Assembly (NCBI RefSeq): GCF_002160065.1
Contig: NZ_NFJW01000003.1
Location: 145,571 to 209,570 of the forward strand
Source of the DNA: Collinsella sp. An2
Lineage (GTDB): Bacteria; Actinomycetota; Coriobacteriia; Coriobacteriales; Coriobacteriaceae
Length of the DNA: 64,000 nt
Reading direction: 5' to 3'
The position numbers and the translations under genes were made by a program. The notes under the pieces are model-generated. The model was given only the letters and a program-made list of their open reading frames with translations, had not been told where the DNA came from and did no database searches. How positions within the stretch are numbered: position 1 is the first letter of the stretch; each line of letters starts with the position of its first letter. Shown here in pieces: positions 3,949-40,165 of the stretch.

Positions 3949-5433
3949 ATGTTTAATAGCCTTTCCGATCGCTTGACCGATACCTTTGACCGCCTGCGCG
4001 GCAAGGGCAAGCTCACCGAGGCCGACATCACGGCGGCGATGCGCGAGATCCGCATGGCGCTGCTCGAGGCCGACGTCAACTACAAGGTCGTCAAGGATTT
4101 CGTCGCCCGCACGCGCGAGCGCTGCCTCACCGTTGAGGTCATGGACTCGCTGACGCCCGCCCAGAACGTCGTGAAGATCGTGCTCGACGAGCTCATCGAG
4201 CTCCTTGGCTCGACCGAGAGCAAGCTCGTGCTGTCCAACCGCATCCCCAACGTCATCATGCTCGTGGGCCTTCAGGGCTCCGGTAAGACGACGGCTGCGG
4301 CCAAGCTCGCCTTTATGCTCAAGAAGCAGGGCCGCTCTCCGCTGCTTGCGGCGTGCGACGTGTACCGTCCCGCTGCAGCCGACCAGCTTGCCACGCTCGG
4401 CGGCGAAATTGGCGTGCCGGTGTTCCGCGGCGACGGCCAGCATCCGGTCGATATCGCCAAAGGCGCGGTTCGCGAAGCCGTCGACCACATGCGCGATGTG
4501 GTCATCGTCGATACCGCCGGCCGCCTGCAGATCGACGAGCAGATGATGCAGGAGGCCGTCGACATCAAACGTGCCGTGAAGCCCGACCAGGTGCTCATGG
4601 TCGTCGATGCCATGACCGGCCAGGACATCGTGAACGTCGTCTCCACCTTCGCCGAGCGCACGGATTTCGACGGCGTGATCATCTCGAAGCTCGACGGCGA
4701 CGCCCGCGGCGGCGGCGCGCTTTCGGTCCGCCAGGTCACCGGTAAGCCCATCAAGTTTGTCTCGATGGGCGAAAAGCCCGACTCGCTCGAGGTTTTCAAC
4801 CCCGAGCGCATGGCGAAGCGTATCCTGGGCATGGGCGACGTCGTCGGCATCATCGAGAAGGCCCAGGAGATGGCCGACGCCGAGCAGGTTGAGGCTGCCG
4901 AGCGCATGCTTCGCGAGGGCTTTACCATGAACGACATGGTCGACCAGATGCGCGCCCTGAAGAAGATGGGTGGCATGAAATCGATCATCGGCATGCTGCC
5001 GGGCGGCCAGAAGCTGCTCAACCAGATGGGCGGCAACGTCGACGAATCCGTCATGGACAAGATCGAGGCCATGATCATGTCCATGACCGCTGAGGAGCGC
5101 CTGAAGCCCTCGATCATCAACGGACAGCGCCGTGCTCGTATCGCCCGCGGTTCGGGCACTACGCCCACCGACGTGAACAACCTCATGCGCCAGTGGGGCG
5201 AGATGAACAAGATGATGGGCAAGATGCGCTCTATGTCGCAGCAGATGGGCGGCAAGAAAGGTAAGAAGGGCAAGAAAGGCAAGCGCATGCGCATGCCGGG
5301 AATGCCCGGGATGAGCGGCATGCCTGGCATGGGCGGCGCGAATCCCTTCGCAGGCTTCGGCGGCTCGGGTGGCGGCTCCGACATGGACATGCTCCGCGCG
5401 ATGGAGCAGCAGATGAAGGGCAAGAAGTTCTAA
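3949..5433 (+). CDS. ffh: Signal recognition particle protein Ffh
   Basis: Ffh is the SRP54 GTPase, which binds signal sequences and 4.5S RNA and delivers nascent chains to FtsY. The 494 residues show the N domain, the G domain (GLQGSGKTTAAAK near residue 107, DVYRPAAADQL, DTAGRLQ, SKLDGDARGG) and a methionine-rich M domain from about residue 300. The tail is Lys/Gly/Met-rich (GKKGKKGKK followed by MPGMPGM). AGGAG at 3938-3942 supports the ATG at 3949. It converges with the merR gene downstream, leaving only 16 bases between them. Confidence 0.97.
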   Translation: MFNSLSDRLTDTFDRLRGKGKLTEADITAAMREIRMALLEADVNYKVVKDFVARTRERCLTVEVMDSLTPAQNVVKIVLDELIELLGSTESKLVLSNRIPNVIMLVGLQGSGKTTAAAKLAFMLKKQGRSPLLAACDVYRPAAADQLATLGGEIGVPVFRGDGQHPVDIAKGAVREAVDHMRDVVIVDTAGRLQIDEQMMQEAVDIKRAVKPDQVLMVVDAMTGQDIVNVVSTFAERTDFDGVIISKLDGDARGGGALSVRQVTGKPIKFVSMGEKPDSLEVFNPERMAKRILGMGDVVGIIEKAQEMADAEQVEAAERMLREGFTMNDMVDQMRALKKMGGMKSIIGMLPGGQKLLNQMGGNVDESVMDKIEAMIMSMTAEERLKPSIINGQRRARIARGSGTTPTDVNNLMRQWGEMNKMMGKMRSMSQQMGGKKGKKGKKGKRMRMPGMPGMSGMPGMGGANPFAGFGGSGGGSDMDMLRAMEQQMKGKKF

Positions 5434-34714: not shown

Positions 34715-35131
34715 ATGGCTGCTCTGGCGCTCGATATCGGTGATGTTCGCGTTGGCATCGCTGCGTCTGACGCAAGCGGACGCGTGGCGATGCCGGTGAA
34801 GGTGCTTCCGGCGGCGGAGGTGACCGGTATGGCTCGGTCGTTCCGCATGATCTTGGAGGACTATGAGCCCGAGGTGCTCGTGTGCGGGCGTCCCGAGACC
34901 CTGGGAGGGGAGGATGGCCCGCAGGCCCAGCGCGTCACCGAGGTGGCTCGGCGCGTGGGCGAGGCGACCGGTCTTCCCGTCGAGTTCGTCGACGAGCGCT
35001 TGTCCTCGCGCGAGGCCAAGCGCATCCTGCGCGAACAGGGCCTTTCCGAGCGCGATATGCGCGGCAAGGTCGATATGGTTGCAGCGAGTCTGTTTCTGCA
35101 GACTTGGCTTGACCGTCAGCGCAACGCGTAG
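34715..35131 (+). CDS. ruvX: RuvX/YqgF-family putative pre-16S rRNA nuclease
   Basis: This 138-residue RNase H-fold protein is needed for 5' maturation of 16S rRNA in other bacteria. It has LALDIGDVRVGIAASD at the start, VCGRPETLGGEDGPQA, FVDERLSSREAKRIL and KVDMVAASLFLQTWLD near the end, giving the three acidic catalytic residues. In many actinobacteria alaS-ruvX is followed directly by mltG; here mltG is 9 kb away, past an accessory block. Confidence 0.93.
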   Translation: MAALALDIGDVRVGIAASDASGRVAMPVKVLPAAEVTGMARSFRMILEDYEPEVLVCGRPETLGGEDGPQAQRVTEVARRVGEATGLPVEFVDERLSSREAKRILREQGLSERDMRGKVDMVAASLFLQTWLDRQRNA

Positions 35132-35184
35132 GGGAGTGCCCGGGGGTTGTCTGGCGCTAGGCTGCGCGGTTGATTTGCTTGTGG

Positions 35185-35222
35185 AGGCGAGGGTCCAGTT
35201 GGGTCCTCGCCTTTTCTTTTTG
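35185..35222 (+). terminator. Rho-independent terminator of alaS-ruvX
   Basis: AGGCGAGG (35185-35192) pairs with CCTCGCCT (35205-35212), followed by TTTCTTTTTG, 54 bases after the ruvX stop. Confidence 0.85.
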
Positions 35223-35268: not shown

Positions 35269-35682
35269 TGGGCAATTCTGCCGTCCCCTGGGCAGCTGCG
35301 ATGCGTCGGGGTTGTGCCGCTGGTCAATTCGAGTGGCGGCTGGGTATGAGCGACGCATTCGGGTCAAGCGGTTGGTCAATTCGGATGAGCGCTGGGCAAG
35401 AGGGGCGTGGTCTCGTGCAGCTGTTGGTCAATTTTGTTGAGCGCTGGGTACGTGCGGCGAGGTGTCGTCGCGCGTTGACCCGTAATGGGGCTGCCTTGCT
35501 GTCCAGGAGGCCATCATTTTGACCACATCTGCATGCATGCGAGAAGTACCGATGCCCAGCGCGCGCTCCAATTGACCACACTCCCTCCAATGTTGCGATC
35601 TTCGTACCCAGCACGAACCTATATTGACCATTCCGCAACCGATCTTGTGGATCGTCCGCCCAGGCGAGCGCTCGATTGGCCA
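35269..35682. repeat. Eight-unit symmetric repeat array, 52-bp period
   Basis: Four direct 26-bp units start at 35269, 35321, 35373 and 35425, exactly 52 bp apart. Each begins TGG(T/G)CAATT and ends with CTGGG(C/T)A. Four inverted units lie at 35500, 35553, 35605 and 35657, ending TTGACCA or TTGGCCA. The two halves mirror about 35475. The intervening 26-bp stretches are GC-rich and poorly conserved. No credible gene lies between 35132 and 35923. The 52-bp period equals five helical turns, which suggests a protein-binding array, but the function is unknown. Confidence 0.75.
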
Positions 35683-35923: not shown

Positions 35924-38900
35924 ATGATTCTCAAGTCGATTCAAAATGTTTTCGGGGGGGGGGATGCTCATTCTGAGCATCTAGTCCAACAACGGAATAG
36001 CTGGATTCGCATCGTAAGCATCTGCGCAGCGGTACTGTGCGCAGCGGTGATGGTGCCTGCTGACGCGCTGTCGGCGAAAGCCGCGACGCTAAGCGAGGTT
36101 TTGATAGATGCAAGATCTGCTGAGGGTACAGCTGTGCTGCCACGGGATGTTGACGATGTCCAGGCTATGATTGACGCGCTTCCCACGGCGGAGGCCTTGG
36201 CGTCGATGTCCCTGGACGAACAAGCGACGGTCTATGACCAGGTACAGGCAGCCTGTGATGCCTATACCGTCCTGACCGACGAGCAGAAAGAGCAGATTAC
36301 TGGGGCGGAGGTTATCAACGACCTCTTTGCGGTATTCAATGGCACGGTGAATGCGCTGGCAGACAATACGTACAATATCAACAGTGGAAATGTCGTAATT
36401 TCCGAGAGTGGCAGCTATACCATCACCGGCAGTGGCAACACGACAAACACCATTACGGTCAATTCTGGCGTGATGGTGACGATTACATTAAACAACGTCA
36501 ACATTGACCTCTCAAACGGTAGCGGCCCCGCCTTTGATATTCAATCCGGCGCAAATGTGACGCTGATCCTGGAGGGCGCAAACACGCTCACCAGCGGCGA
36601 CTGTATCGGCATCAATAGTAGCGGCGCCCCCGGTATCCACCTGCCCACTGGTGCGTCGCTTACGATTCAGAGCCTCAATGGAGATGCTTCCGCCTCGCTG
36701 GCAGTCAAAGGTGGCAAGGAAACCATAAGGGGCGGCGCGGGCATTGGCGGCGATTTAGACGAAAGCTGCGGCACGGTAACTATCAACAGCGGTTGTGTGG
36801 AGATTAATGGCGGCGATGCGGTCTATGCTGGTGGTGTAGGCATCGGCGGCGGCACCAAGACAACATACACTGCCGGAAATGGTGGCACGGTGATCATCAA
36901 TGGCGGCACCGTCAACATAACCGGGGGTGCTGGGAGGTATGGCGGAGCGGGCATTGGCGGCGGCGTCTCCGCATCCGGCCCTGCCGGCAGCGGTGGCGTA
37001 ACGGTTATCACCGGCGGCAATGTGACCGTCACAGGCGGTGCGGGCGACTATGTTGGCGGCGCAGGCATCGGCGGTGGCACAGCATATAGCGGCCAAGGCG
37101 TCGGCGGCAACGGCGGCACAGTGGTCGTGCTGAATGGTGCCGAGATTACCGGCGGCCTCGGCGACGATCGAAATGGCAACGACTGTGGCGTTGGAATTAG
37201 CACGGCTTGGAATGATGGTGCAGATAGCGGTGACGGCATCTTGCCCAGTGGCGACGACTATAGTGTCTATGGCGATTTGGAGCTGCCCGACGATATTGTA
37301 ATTCACAGCGGCGTGACCGTAACCATCCCAGATGGTACCAGTTTGATTATCCCGGAGAACATAGAGCTGGTGGTGGATGGCACGCTGAAGGTGGAGGAAG
37401 GCGGCTCTCTGTCCAACGGCGGAACGATTTCCGGTAGCGGCACCCTGACCGGCGACGGAACGGTTGCGAATAATGGCGGTACTATAACCGTGAGCAACAA
37501 TGATTTTGCCGCAAATGTTACTTTGAGCATAACCAGCGGCGGAAGTCCCGTAGGTTCTGTTACCTATGGCTCCACCGTTACCCTGACGGCCAACGTAACA
37601 GACGGCTCCGGGGCAGTCAATAGCGGCACCGTGTATTTCTATCAGGGATCGAATACATCCGGCACTCTGCTGAACAGCGGCGGCACAAATGTGAACAGCG
37701 GCAAAGCATCCTATAGCTTGACTTTGAACGATGCCAGCTGGACACCCAGCGAGAAGGCCTACACCATCACCGCCGTCTATGCCCCCGGGCAGGACAGCGG
37801 TCTGCTGTCGGGCAACGGCGCCGGCGCCCTCACCGTGTCCAAGGCGACACCCGGCGAGCCGCCAGACGGCCCAAATATTTTGAATGAAAAGACTACAACC
37901 AGTGTTACGTTGAATCCGGTTGATGACGATGGTGCAGATATCTACGGTACTATTCAATACGGATATATCACGGGTGATGAGACTTCTGTCCCGGAGGATC
38001 GCTGGCAGAACAGCAATGCATTTACTAGCCTGTCCCCCGGTACGGACTACACCTTCTACACCCGATACGCCGGGAATGACTACTATAACCCGTCCAACCT
38101 CTTCTACTTCGGCTATCGTCTCACCACTTTACCTTCCGTTACGACCACCAGCCTAACCAGCGGATATGTGGGCGTGGAGTATGAAGCGCAACTGGAGGCC
38201 AGCGTTGCCGATAACAAGACGGTGACATGGACGCTTGCGAATGGTGCCACCCTGCCGGAGGGACTGACGCTGAATGCCAGTACCGGCGTAATCAGCGGCG
38301 TGCCGAAAGCGACGGCTACCAGCCACAGCTTTACTGTTCAAGCGTCTATCGACAGCATTGTTAACTTCGAGCGGATAACCAACACGGCAATCCTGTCCAT
38401 CAGCATCAACGCCGGTAAGTCGGACATCTCGGCGAACACCTACAACGGTGAAACGCAGACCGACACATTCAACTACGGTGACACCATCACGGTCAAAGGT
38501 ACGATTTCGCCCTCCAGCCAAACGCCCAGCGACGGCATCAACGCCATCGCGGAACCGGCGCAGAACCAGGTGGGTCTGTATTTGGGTGAAACCGAACTCG
38601 CTACGGCGGATGTGGAGAACGGCGGCGGCTTTACCCTCACCTATGACACCAGCAACAAGGGAATCCCCATAGGGGAGGAACAGACCCTCACGGTGAAGTA
38701 TGGCGGCAGCTCTGATCTTATTGCTGGTTCCGCCACTGTGACCATCACGCTGAACCGTAAGCCCGTGACGGTTGCATTCACCGGTCCGGCTACCAAGACC
38801 TACGACGGCAATGTGAAGCCGCCGGAGGGCCTGGCCGTCGTCCTGGCCGACGGAGTTGTGGTGGGGGATGACGACGTGACGGTCTCGGCGGCCGGCATCG

Positions 38901-40165
38901 CCTACGACAGCCCCGGGGTGGGGACGGACAAGACTATCACCGCCAGCGGGCTCGTTCTCGGTGGTGATAATGCGGACTGGTATGACCTACGTGAAACGTC
39001 CGCGACCACGGCGGGCTCCATCAGGAGCCCCTACGTGCCGCCCTCGACGCCCTCCGGCCCCGTGTCCGGCGGGACGAAGGGCTGGGACTCCATCATCGAC
39101 AAGCTCAAGGGAGCAAAGGACGGCGACACCGTCACCGTGGACATGAAGGGGACCACGGAGCTCCCCGCCGAGGCCCTCGAGGCAGTCGCCGGCCGCGACG
39201 TCACGCTCGTGCTCGACATGGGGGAGGGCGTGTCGTGGGAGATCCGGGGCGTCGACGTCCCGGCGGACATGGCGTTCACCGATCTCGACATGGGGGTCGA
39301 GATGGGTACGGACGCCATATCGGCGGACGTCGTGAACCTCGTGACGGGCGAGGCGGGCTCGGTCGAGCTCACGCTCGCGCACGACGGACCCTTCGGGTTC
39401 ACGCTCACGCTCGTGGCGCCGCTCGGCGAGGAGGCCAAGGGACTTGTGGCGAACCTCTATCACTACGACCCCGAGAAGGGGCTCGCATTCGAGACCTCCG
39501 GCGAGGTCGGGGAAGACGGCTCGGCTCGCCTGCCGCTCAACCACGCCTCGACGTGGCTCGTCGCGCTCGACAGGGCCTCGCACGCGCTGCCCTTCGCGGA
39601 CACGTCCGAGGGCGAGTGGTACTCGGAGGCCATCCGCTGGGCGTGGCTCCACGGCGTCATGACCGGCTACGACGACGGGTCGAACCTCTTCGGCACGGGG
39701 GACGCCCTCACGCGCGCCCAGCTCGCGGCGACGCTCTACAAGGCCGCCGGCTCGCCCGCGGCCGACCCCGCCGGTGTAGAGAGGTACTCCGACTGCGACC
39801 CCGGCGCCTGGTACGCGGAGGCGGTCTCCTGGGCATCCGACCAGGGCCTCATGTCGGGCTACGACGACGGGTCCGGCCGCTTCGCGCCTGACGCCCCGCT
39901 CACGCGCGAGCAGCTCGCGACCGTCTTCTGGAGGGCGGCCGGCTCGCCTGAGGCCGAGGCGGACCTGGGGGCGTTCCCCGACGGCGGAGAGACGTCCCCG
40001 TGGGCGAGGCCCGCGGTCTCCTGGGCGGTCTCCACGGGCTTGCTCAAGGGTTATGATAATACCGGCGAGCTCGGCCCCGCGGGCACCCTCACGCGCGCAC
40101 AGATGGCCACGGTGCTCTACCGCCTCGCCGCGGAGGGAGCGGGCGGGGACCTCGGCATCCTGTAG
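35924..40165 (+). CDS. Large SLH-domain surface protein, probably phase-variable
   Basis: This 1413-residue secreted protein has a signal peptide at about residues 26-53 (IVSICAAVLCAAVMVPADA). A beta-helix-like region rich in Gly/Asn follows at about 147-410, with repeated GGAGIGGG and VTVTGG/VTINSG turns. Then come Ig-like and putative-Ig modules (YVGVEYEAQLEASV, LPEGLTLNASTGVISGVP), a YDG-type domain (about 948-1029, ATKTYDGNVKPPEG) and three SLH domains (about 1223, 1287 and 1350) that would anchor it to wall polymers. A G10 tract lies at codons 11-14, before the signal peptide. The middle (36.3-38.9 kb) is visibly AT-richer than the SLH end, so the gene looks mosaic. A terminator follows. 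Confidence 0.88.
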   Translation: MILKSIQNVFGGGDAHSEHLVQQRNSWIRIVSICAAVLCAAVMVPADALSAKAATLSEVLIDARSAEGTAVLPRDVDDVQAMIDALPTAEALASMSLDEQATVYDQVQAACDAYTVLTDEQKEQITGAEVINDLFAVFNGTVNALADNTYNINSGNVVISESGSYTITGSGNTTNTITVNSGVMVTITLNNVNIDLSNGSGPAFDIQSGANVTLILEGANTLTSGDCIGINSSGAPGIHLPTGASLTIQSLNGDASASLAVKGGKETIRGGAGIGGDLDESCGTVTINSGCVEINGGDAVYAGGVGIGGGTKTTYTAGNGGTVIINGGTVNITGGAGRYGGAGIGGGVSASGPAGSGGVTVITGGNVTVTGGAGDYVGGAGIGGGTAYSGQGVGGNGGTVVVLNGAEITGGLGDDRNGNDCGVGISTAWNDGADSGDGILPSGDDYSVYGDLELPDDIVIHSGVTVTIPDGTSLIIPENIELVVDGTLKVEEGGSLSNGGTISGSGTLTGDGTVANNGGTITVSNNDFAANVTLSITSGGSPVGSVTYGSTVTLTANVTDGSGAVNSGTVYFYQGSNTSGTLLNSGGTNVNSGKASYSLTLNDASWTPSEKAYTITAVYAPGQDSGLLSGNGAGALTVSKATPGEPPDGPNILNEKTTTSVTLNPVDDDGADIYGTIQYGYITGDETSVPEDRWQNSNAFTSLSPGTDYTFYTRYAGNDYYNPSNLFYFGYRLTTLPSVTTTSLTSGYVGVEYEAQLEASVADNKTVTWTLANGATLPEGLTLNASTGVISGVPKATATSHSFTVQASIDSIVNFERITNTAILSISINAGKSDISANTYNGETQTDTFNYGDTITVKGTISPSSQTPSDGINAIAEPAQNQVGLYLGETELATADVENGGGFTLTYDTSNKGIPIGEEQTLTVKYGGSSDLIAGSATVTITLNRKPVTVAFTGPATKTYDGNVKPPEGLAVVLADGVVVGDDDVTVSAAGIAYDSPGVGTDKTITASGLVLGGDNADWYDLRETSATTAGSIRSPYVPPSTPSGPVSGGTKGWDSIIDKLKGAKDGDTVTVDMKGTTELPAEALEAVAGRDVTLVLDMGEGVSWEIRGVDVPADMAFTDLDMGVEMGTDAISADVVNLVTGEAGSVELTLAHDGPFGFTLTLVAPLGEEAKGLVANLYHYDPEKGLAFETSGEVGEDGSARLPLNHASTWLVALDRASHALPFADTSEGEWYSEAIRWAWLHGVMTGYDDGSNLFGTGDALTRAQLAATLYKAAGSPAADPAGVERYSDCDPGAWYAEAVSWASDQGLMSGYDDGSGRFAPDAPLTREQLATVFWRAAGSPEAEADLGAFPDGGETSPWARPAVSWAVSTGLLKGYDNTGELGPAGTLTRAQMATVLYRLAAEGAGGDLGIL
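35954..35963 (+). repeat. G10 homopolymer in the surface-protein start region
   Basis: Ten consecutive G residues encode Gly-Gly-Gly and the first base of Asp at codons 11-14. No other in-frame ATG, GTG or TTG lies between the tract and the signal peptide, so a one-base slip would silence the gene. The tract is in the ON frame here. Confidence 0.8.

What the first reader, a model, noticed from the sequence alone, without database searches (positions are those of the whole stretch)
35269..35682. Eight-unit repeat array with 52-bp period and exact mirror symmetry
Four direct 26-bp units begin at 35269, 35321, 35373 and 35425; four inverted units at 35500, 35553, 35605 and 35657. Unit pairs all centre on 35475 to within a base. 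Conservation sits in the unit ends (TGGTCAATT and GCTGGGTA), while the 26-bp gaps vary. The 52-bp step is five helical turns, so units face one side of the DNA. This suggests an ordered protein-binding array, possibly a regulator or nucleoid/partition site, next to a phase-variable surface gene. I know of no described element of this form.
Basis: seen in the sequence. Interest (0 to 1): 0.78.

Follow-up and report, generated by a model that had tools for sequence, protein, structure and literature searches.

The report
Dispersed mirror-image protein-docking DNA arrays
A bacterium and three of its relatives carry 7 to 14 copies each, between genes, of a DNA element built from short sites repeated every 52 letters and pointing inward from both sides; in the two relatives that could be compared the sites have been kept while the DNA between them has drifted, so they are likely landing pads for a still unidentified protein that would organise or insulate the chromosome.

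Summary
The eight-unit array at 35269-35682 is one of at least 14 arrays of this form in its 2.5-Mb genome (family Coriobacteriaceae by nearest named relatives). Same-genus G002 has 12; in another genus G009 has 11 and G021 has 7, on a different unit consensus (40 of the 44 two-armed). The two-unit pattern was not found in the other 293 genomes searched in the order. Arms hold 2-5 asymmetric 26-bp units, 52 bp apart in 154 of 174 steps, facing each other; centre distances vary by whole helical turns. Between seven orthologous G009/G021 arrays boxes are 97% identical and gaps 70%: the sites are under purifying selection as DNA. Arrays are intergenic, never between divergent genes (0 of 42 against 35 of 149; P = 8e-5), and spread along the chromosome by a synteny proxy. 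The window's inner 3+3 units were copied as a block to or from another locus. RNA hairpins, parS sites, REP/BIME, CRISPR/TIGR and an operator for the neighbouring gene fit poorly. Best reading: docking arrays for an unidentified, oligomerising DNA-binding protein acting on chromosome structure at gene ends. The protein and its role are inferred.

The parts
35269..35294 (+). Direct unit 1 (outermost left; TGGGCAATT..CCTGGGCA)
   Evidence: PWM score 26.2; outside the block shared with the paralogous array L037
35321..35346 (+). Direct unit 2 (TGGTCAATT..GGCTGGGTA); left edge of the block shared with L037
35373..35398 (+). Direct unit 3 (TGGTCAATT..GCTGGGCA)
35425..35450 (+). Direct unit 4 (innermost left)
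35451..35499 (.). 49-bp centre separating the two arms
   Evidence: the 76/77-bp centre class, the commonest
35500..35525 (-). Inverted unit 4' (innermost right; TGGTCAAAA..CCTGGACA)
   Evidence: score 25.6
35553..35578 (-). Inverted unit 3'
35605..35630 (-). Inverted unit 2'; right edge of the block shared with L037
35657..35682 (-). Inverted unit 1' (outermost, most degenerate; TGGCCAATC..)
   Evidence: score 13.6
35183..35214 (+). Terminator-like hairpin with a T-run after the upstream gene, before the array
   Evidence: sequence
34715..35131 (+). Upstream gene, YqgF/RuvX-like (name recalled, not tested); ends 138 bp before the array
35924..40165 (+). Downstream gene: 1413-aa protein with SLH, YDG and putative Ig-like domains

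Best explanation
The array is one copy of a dispersed intergenic DNA element, a set of asymmetric 26-bp sites repeated every 52 bp in two arms that face each other, and it is likely a docking platform on which an unidentified, lineage-specific DNA-binding protein would assemble from both sides on one face of the helix to organise or insulate the chromosome at gene ends. Shown: the architecture, the copy number, the exact spacing and helically quantised centres, box sequences kept while gap sequences drift, placement away from divergent promoters, and copying of a 3+3-unit block between two loci. Supported by proxy only: dispersal along the chromosome. Inferred: that a protein binds, that it oligomerises along each arm towards the centre (five-turn steps place the units on the same face), and that the function is local chromosome structure (domain boundary, topology or insulation) rather than control of one promoter. 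The unit consensus differs between the two genera while the geometry is kept, as would be expected if the binding protein and its sites have co-evolved.
For: 44 arrays in four genomes, 40 two-armed and 4 one-armed. Same-arm spacing between units with at most one box mismatch: 52 bp in 154 of 174 steps, 51 in 11, 53 in 8, 63 in 1. Centre distances of 30 of the 40 two-armed arrays (orthologues dropped) are 66, 76/77, 86, 118, 128 and 139/140 bp, i.e. three phases about 10.5 bp apart modulo 52. Seven of seven G021 arrays have a G009 orthologue: boxes 467/480 identical, gaps 715/1026; positions 15-17, not used to find units, 115/120 against 81/120 at positions 10-12. 0 of 42 arrays divergent against 35 of 149 other intergenic regions (P = 8e-5); convergent 12/42 against 12/114 non-divergent regions (P = 0.011). 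Mirror-partner gaps no more alike (0.34) than same-arm gaps (0.35), so no RNA or cruciform pairing is seen. Window inner 3+3 units and the whole L037 array 77% identical over 317 nt, homology stopping at the L037 array ends. Fifteen located flanking-gene fragments 0.24-0.95 Mb from dnaA in G004.
Against: No binding protein was identified. No gene family recurs beside the arrays except ABC transporters (9 arrays), one membrane-protein cluster (5 arrays), glycosyltransferases, tRNA synthetases and the like, with at most four genes per side compared. Distribution is patchy: 2 of 3 genomes in one genus, 2 of 9 in the other, so the system is dispensable for the family. Only four of 14 G000 arrays (L039, L047, both of L042) share clear neighbourhoods with G002 arrays. 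The helical-phase argument rests on three independent phases; 18 of 30 arrays share one centre distance, so R is also high (0.66-0.76) at 9, 10, 11 and 12 bp over all arrays, though not among distinct values. Mirror partners are slightly more alike than non-mirror pairs of the same array (gaps 0.34 against 0.31). The gene calls behind the orientation test are my own heuristic.
Confidence: 0.55

Rival explanations
1. The arrays are cargo-less mobile elements: each arm is a transposon end with several inward-facing transposase sites (as in Tn7-like elements), moved in trans and otherwise without host function.
For: Inward-facing multi-site arms with helical spacing resemble Tn7-like ends (PMC10201428 passages). 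Outer units mostly start TG and end CA. A 3+3 block was copied between two loci with homology ending at the L037 array ends. Patchy distribution. Mostly different neighbourhoods in G000 and G002.
Against: No target-site duplication of 3-9 bp directly at the outer unit ends in any of 40 two-armed arrays. No centre read exceeds 112 bp, so no array read encloses a gene. Dead copies at fixed places should not keep boxes at 97% while gaps drift to 70%. Few array pairs of one genome match each other beyond the boxes.
Confidence: 0.2
2. The arrays are transcription insulators: protein roadblocks on both sides of a gene end or terminator that stop RNA polymerase arriving from either direction.
For: Found at gene 3' ends, enriched between convergent genes. 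Symmetric, so the same from both sides. A hairpin with a T- or A-run sits in the centre of 4 of 16 scanned arrays of the second genus (L165, L167, L169, L173).
Against: In the window's genus the same scan finds one in 1 of 14 G000 arrays and 0 of 9 G002 arrays; in the window the terminator-like hairpin lies outside the array (35183-35214). In 30 co-directional settings the array lies a median of 150 bp from the upstream stop codon, leaving room for an ordinary terminator.
Confidence: 0.2
3. A folded RNA (3'-UTR hairpin or small RNA) made from the two complementary arms.
For: Arms are inverted and the boxes are complementary; mirror partners are slightly more alike in the gaps (0.34) than non-mirror pairs (0.31).
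Against: Mirror-partner gap identity is no higher than within an arm (0.35), where pairing would need values near 1. Fixed DNA helical spacing. No Rfam match in the window at gathering thresholds.
Confidence: 0.04
4. Operator for the phase-variable SLH surface gene downstream.
For: The array ends about 240 bp upstream of the gene, and the three poly-G SLH genes found in this genome each lie next to an array.
Against: In the other two cases the array is downstream of the SLH gene; the other 11 G000 arrays have no SLH gene in that cluster; none of 42 arrays is in a divergent region.
Confidence: 0.05

Closest known systems
REP/BIME elements (bacterial interspersed mosaic elements)
   Same: Dispersed, extragenic, regularly spaced repeats in both orientations; lineage-specific; described as protein-binding and proposed to be non-autonomous mobile elements (PMC2817692 abstract and passages).
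   Different: REPs are imperfect palindromes, usually >100 copies, in alternating orientation. Here the unit is asymmetric, the orientation is convergent in two blocks, the period is exact and I found 7-14 arrays per genome.
Tn7-like transposon ends with several TnsB sites
   Same: Several transposase sites per end; spacing follows the helical pitch (PMC10201428 passages).
   Different: No cargo or transposase inside the arrays read and no target-site duplication found; boxes kept by selection at fixed loci.
Type II/III plasmid centromeres (parC, tubC)
   Same: Blocks of repeats, sometimes split around a central region, that seed an ordered nucleoprotein complex (PMC5016525 passages).
   Different: Those are single loci upstream of a partition operon; here many chromosomal copies, with no recurring partition gene among the neighbours compared.
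Chromosomal parS sites (ParB)
   Same: Several sites per chromosome.
   Different: parS sites are palindromic and surround the origin (PMC5016525 passages); these units are asymmetric, arrayed and, by synteny, not origin-bound.

Membership tests
REP/BIME | Unit is an imperfect palindrome able to form a hairpin | tested here: not met
   Unit consensus TGGTCAAwt..GCTGGGCA is asymmetric; the variable parts of facing units do not pair
REP/BIME | Units alternate in orientation | tested here: not met
   Arms are blocks, e.g. >>>><<<<
REP/BIME | Extragenic | tested here: met
   0 of 44 overlap a called gene by more than the 60 bp allowed (one by 8 bp, with a weak call); 0 of 42 between divergent genes
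REP/BIME | Associated RAYT transposase in the genome | not tested
Transposon with multi-site ends (Tn7-like), non-autonomous | Target-site duplication at the ends | tested here: not met
   0 of 40 two-armed arrays; old insertions would lose it
Transposon with multi-site ends (Tn7-like), non-autonomous | Copied as a block with ends at the outer sites | tested here: inconclusive
   Met for L037 against the window's inner 3+3 units; other paralogous pairs match only in part
Transposon with multi-site ends (Tn7-like), non-autonomous | Autonomous copy with a transposase | tested here: inconclusive
   None among the 44 arrays read; whole genomes were not read
parS/ParB | Short palindrome clustered around the origin | tested here: not met
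   Asymmetric 26-bp unit; 15 of 21 flanking-gene fragments located in G004, 0.24-0.95 Mb from dnaA
parC/tubC centromere | Next to a partition operon | tested here: not met
   No recurrent gene of that kind beside arrays, up to four genes per side compared
CRISPR or TIGR array | Near-identical repeats in one orientation (TIGR: two alternating repeats with about 9-nt spacers; recalled) | tested here: not met
   Two opposed arms, diverged units, period 52 with gaps of about 26 bp
Any DNA-binding-protein site array | A protein that binds it | not testable with these tools
   Needs pull-down or DAP-seq

The most novel reading that the evidence does not exclude
A new class of bacterial chromosome-architecture element: polar docking sites set at five-turn steps in convergent arms, repeated at gene ends around the chromosome and served by a dedicated, unknown protein that polymerises from both arms to a central junction, a bacterial counterpart of convergent boundary elements, possibly domesticated from transposon ends.
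Probability: 0.35. Interest if true: 0.87.

Novelty: new variant of a known kind. Interest (0 to 1): 0.7.

Why it matters
If the reading is right, a few species of Coriobacteriaceae carry an undescribed, selectively maintained chromosome element with its own binding protein. The strict geometry should make the protein easy to fish out and the model easy to test. Two genera using different unit sequences but the same geometry give a natural experiment on how a nucleoprotein complex and its DNA sites co-evolve.

Tried and rejected
RNA hairpin or cruciform: disfavoured by the lack of pairing in the variable parts; no Rfam match in the window at gathering thresholds.

Rearrangement breakpoints: the ribosomal spc operon looked split at an array in G009 and G021, but rplX and rplN are not found in the 3.2-kb loci around rplE in any of eight genomes checked, with or without arrays, so the split is not array-related.

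A gene travelling with the arrays: all-against-all comparison of 323 flanking proteins (up to four per side) gave orthologous neighbourhoods, ABC transporters, a membrane-protein cluster at five arrays, glycosyltransferases and other generic families, and no DNA-binding family.

Phages and viruses: no match to the window array in 50,697 phage records. Two IMG/VR contigs matched the two-unit pattern exactly; neither shows an array, one being a tandem duplication.

Single half-site hypothesis: box 1 (TGGTCA) and box 2 (TGGGCA, 20 bp on) could be direct half-sites. Their matrices correlate best in this genus (0.69) but only weakly in the other (0.49, not the best window). Left as a suggestion.

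Shared array positions between the two genera: the tyrS 3' end (full arrays in G009 and G021, two units in G002) and the valS, gdhA and rpoBC neighbourhoods. By a rough estimate of mine, made without a call, this is not more than chance.

Pattern mistake: the pattern had one N too many and its zero count is meaningless; replace it.

Parsing mistakes: one search also listed four chance pairs (three in the window, one in L048) and a few spurious units inside real arrays (L037, L047, L163, L173, L187); the pairs were left out of later counts, and re-read the arms with a weight matrix.

Full report
What is there. The window array (35269-35682) consists of four direct and four inverted 26-bp units, consensus TGGTCAATT-N9-GCTGGGYA, at 52-bp steps (one of 53) around a 49-bp centre. 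Offset-52 self-similarity and mirror identity stand out from neighbouring offsets. The units are asymmetric, so 'mirror symmetry' means two arms facing each other, not palindromic units.

It is a family. In the window's genome G000 (2.54 Mb, 46 contigs) the unit occurs 117 times at up to 3 mismatches, against 18 for the reversed pattern. The two-unit pattern (52 bp apart) occurs 59 times against 6. These give 14 arrays that I read in full, plus one degenerate three-unit array in L045. Same-genus G002 has 12 arrays and a two-unit remnant behind tyrS. In another genus of the family, G009 has 11 and G021 has 7, with unit TGGTCACGAnnnGnGACnTATGGGYR and an extra block CGTAGCA at positions 34-40. 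Of these 44, 40 have two arms and 4 were read with one arm (L178, L184, L161, L171; a weaker opposite unit was seen in L184). At up to 2 mismatches of the 20-base two-unit pattern, 4 of 65 family genomes match: 2 of 3 in the window's genus, 2 of 9 in the other, none of the remaining 53. With an 18-base common pattern at up to 1 mismatch, 4 of 297 genomes drawn from the order match, the same four. With a third pattern, 3 of 396 genomes drawn from the phylum match, all among those four, G021 not being drawn. Versions with other box sequences would be missed.

Geometry. Of 174 same-arm steps between units with at most one box mismatch, 154 are exactly 52 bp, 11 are 51, 8 are 53 and 1 is 63. Arms hold 2-5 units. 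Centre distances in 30 of the 40 two-armed arrays (dropped: six of G021 and four in three G002 loci, as orthologues or neighbours of orthologues) are 76/77 (18), 66 (3), 86 (1), 118 (2), 128 (1) and 139/140 (5). Modulo 52 these give three phases about 10.5 bp apart, so changes of the centre keep the rotational setting. Rayleigh R is 0.95 at 10.4-10.5 bp but also 0.66-0.76 at 9, 10, 11 and 12 bp, because one class dominates; among distinct values it is 0.94-0.95 at 10.4-10.5 against 0.09-0.65 at 9-10 and 11-12 bp. For six distinct classes the chance of such phasing is 4e-4 after scanning periods of 10-11 bp. That test counts classes that differ by 52 bp, and one class, 24, was seen only at a looser unit threshold, so the independent evidence is three phases. 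In the second genus end-to-end lengths step by about one turn: 350, 360, 370-372, and 402 once.

Selection. All 7 G021 arrays have an orthologue in G009. Across them the two boxes (positions 1-6 and 19-24) are identical at 467 of 480 sites, the gaps (27-52) at 715 of 1026 and the 400-bp flanks, largely coding, at 4412 of 5387. Positions 15-17, which played no part in finding units, are identical at 115 of 120; positions 10-12 at 81 of 120. Units were taken from G009, but both genomes were found by the boxes, so some ascertainment remains. Centre distances are the same in both species in the six pairs where both arms are read. For G000 and G002, where orthology is weaker, boxes and gaps are identical at 75/87 and 57/140 (L039/L187), 62/84 and 65/171, 73/96 and 71/185 (two L042 arrays/L186), and 63/106 and 64/139 (L047/L180, a poor alignment). 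The sites are under purifying selection; the intervening sequence drifts but its length is kept. Facing units do not complement each other in their gaps: 0.34 for mirror partners, 0.31 for other opposed pairs of the same array, 0.35 within an arm, 0.31 between arrays, so RNA or cruciform pairing is not what is kept.

Placement. No array overlaps a gene called by my codon-usage heuristic by more than the 60 bp allowed. At the stricter gene threshold 16 are ++, 14 --, 12 convergent and none divergent (2 undetermined), against 58, 44, 12 and 35 of 149 array-free intergenic regions of 150 bp or more in the same loci (Fisher P = 8e-5 for divergent, 5e-4 without G021; 0.011 for convergent; at a still stricter threshold 5e-4 and 0.002). 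No family recurs among neighbours except ABC transporters, a membrane-protein cluster and other generic ones. In 30 co-directional settings the array lies a median of 150 bp after the upstream stop and 277 bp before the next start. In the window the terminator-like hairpin (35183-35214) precedes the array; a hairpin with a T- or A-run sits in the centre of 4 of 16 scanned arrays of the second genus, 1 of 14 in G000 and 0 of 9 in G002. A query of 21 flanking-gene fragments was sent to two array-free relatives. In the one-contig G004, 15 were located, 0.24-0.95 Mb from dnaA taking the chromosome as 2.1 Mb; in G006 best hits lie between 339 kb and 1.55 Mb of contig 1 (dnaA at 79 kb) or on contig 2. 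This is synteny by proxy, but it speaks against an origin-bound cluster.

Origin of copies. The window array and the array at G000:C1:246.7k (L037) share 317 nt at 77% identity. The match covers positions 298-614 of an L037 piece whose array spans 301-612, that is the whole 3+3-unit L037 array, and in the window the inner 3+3 units (about 35318-35634); no other match between the two pieces (300-bp flanks) reached E 1e-6. A 3+3 block was therefore copied as a unit; the window array has one more unit on each side. Two arrays in L042, about 1.6 kb apart, share 247 nt at 83%. No target-site duplication of 3-9 bp was seen at 40 two-armed arrays. The L081 contig (Candidatus Limicola, alaS 84% identical) has alaS and the next gene but no array in the roughly 0.4 kb that follow before it ends; L080 and L082 have none either.

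Mechanism. The simplest reading is a set of oriented binding sites for a protein that assembles cooperatively on one DNA face in each arm and meets at the centre. Steps shown: sites, spacing, selection, placement. Steps inferred: the protein, its oligomerisation, its role. Placement at gene ends and between convergent genes, apparent dispersal over the chromosome and avoidance of divergent promoters point to chromosome structure or insulation rather than regulation of one gene. The mobile-element rival is real: Tn7-like ends carry several sites with helical spacing (PMC10201428, passages). But selection on the boxes at fixed places argues for a present host function even if the arrays first spread as such elements.

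Comparison with what is known. I read passages of three papers (PMC2817692, PMC5016525, PMC10201428). Six searches for the element itself returned nothing that describes it; they cover open-licence PubMed Central papers only, and I judged them from titles and abstract starts. It resembles BIMEs in genomic behaviour, parC/tubC in layout and Tn7-like ends in site geometry, and fails a defining test of each. I file it as a new variant of dispersed protein-binding repeats, with the stronger reading given as the novel case.

Noticed in passing
window 35954-35981; L037:1973; L048:1583: Three SLH surface genes of this genome carry a 9-10 G tract followed by an inverted repeat (GATGCTCA-TTC-TGAGCATC in the window; imperfect in the others) towards their 5' end. 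A pattern search found only these three in G000, and all three genes lie next to an array, one after it and two before it.
   Followed up: partly
L042:6490-8831 (G000:C34): Two partly homologous arrays (83% over 247 nt) flank a 340-aa open frame without a Pfam match, between an 836-aa gene and a yebC-like gene (name recalled).
   Followed up: partly
L044:5995-6303 (G000:C34:156.5k): An array and a nucleotidyltransferase gene lie between rplL-like and rpoB-like genes (names recalled from sequence).
   Followed up: no
L209:2861-2964 (G002, behind tyrS): A two-unit remnant at the place where G009 and G021 have full arrays: either an old shared array in decay or coincidence.
   Followed up: partly
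L225-L232 (eight genomes): rplX and rplN are not found within about 1.5 kb of rplE in any of eight Coriobacteriaceae genomes, so the spc operon appears split across the family.
   Followed up: partly
G009:L161, G021:L171: A one-armed array of two inverted units is conserved in both species with 24 of 24 box positions identical: one arm alone may be functional.
   Followed up: no
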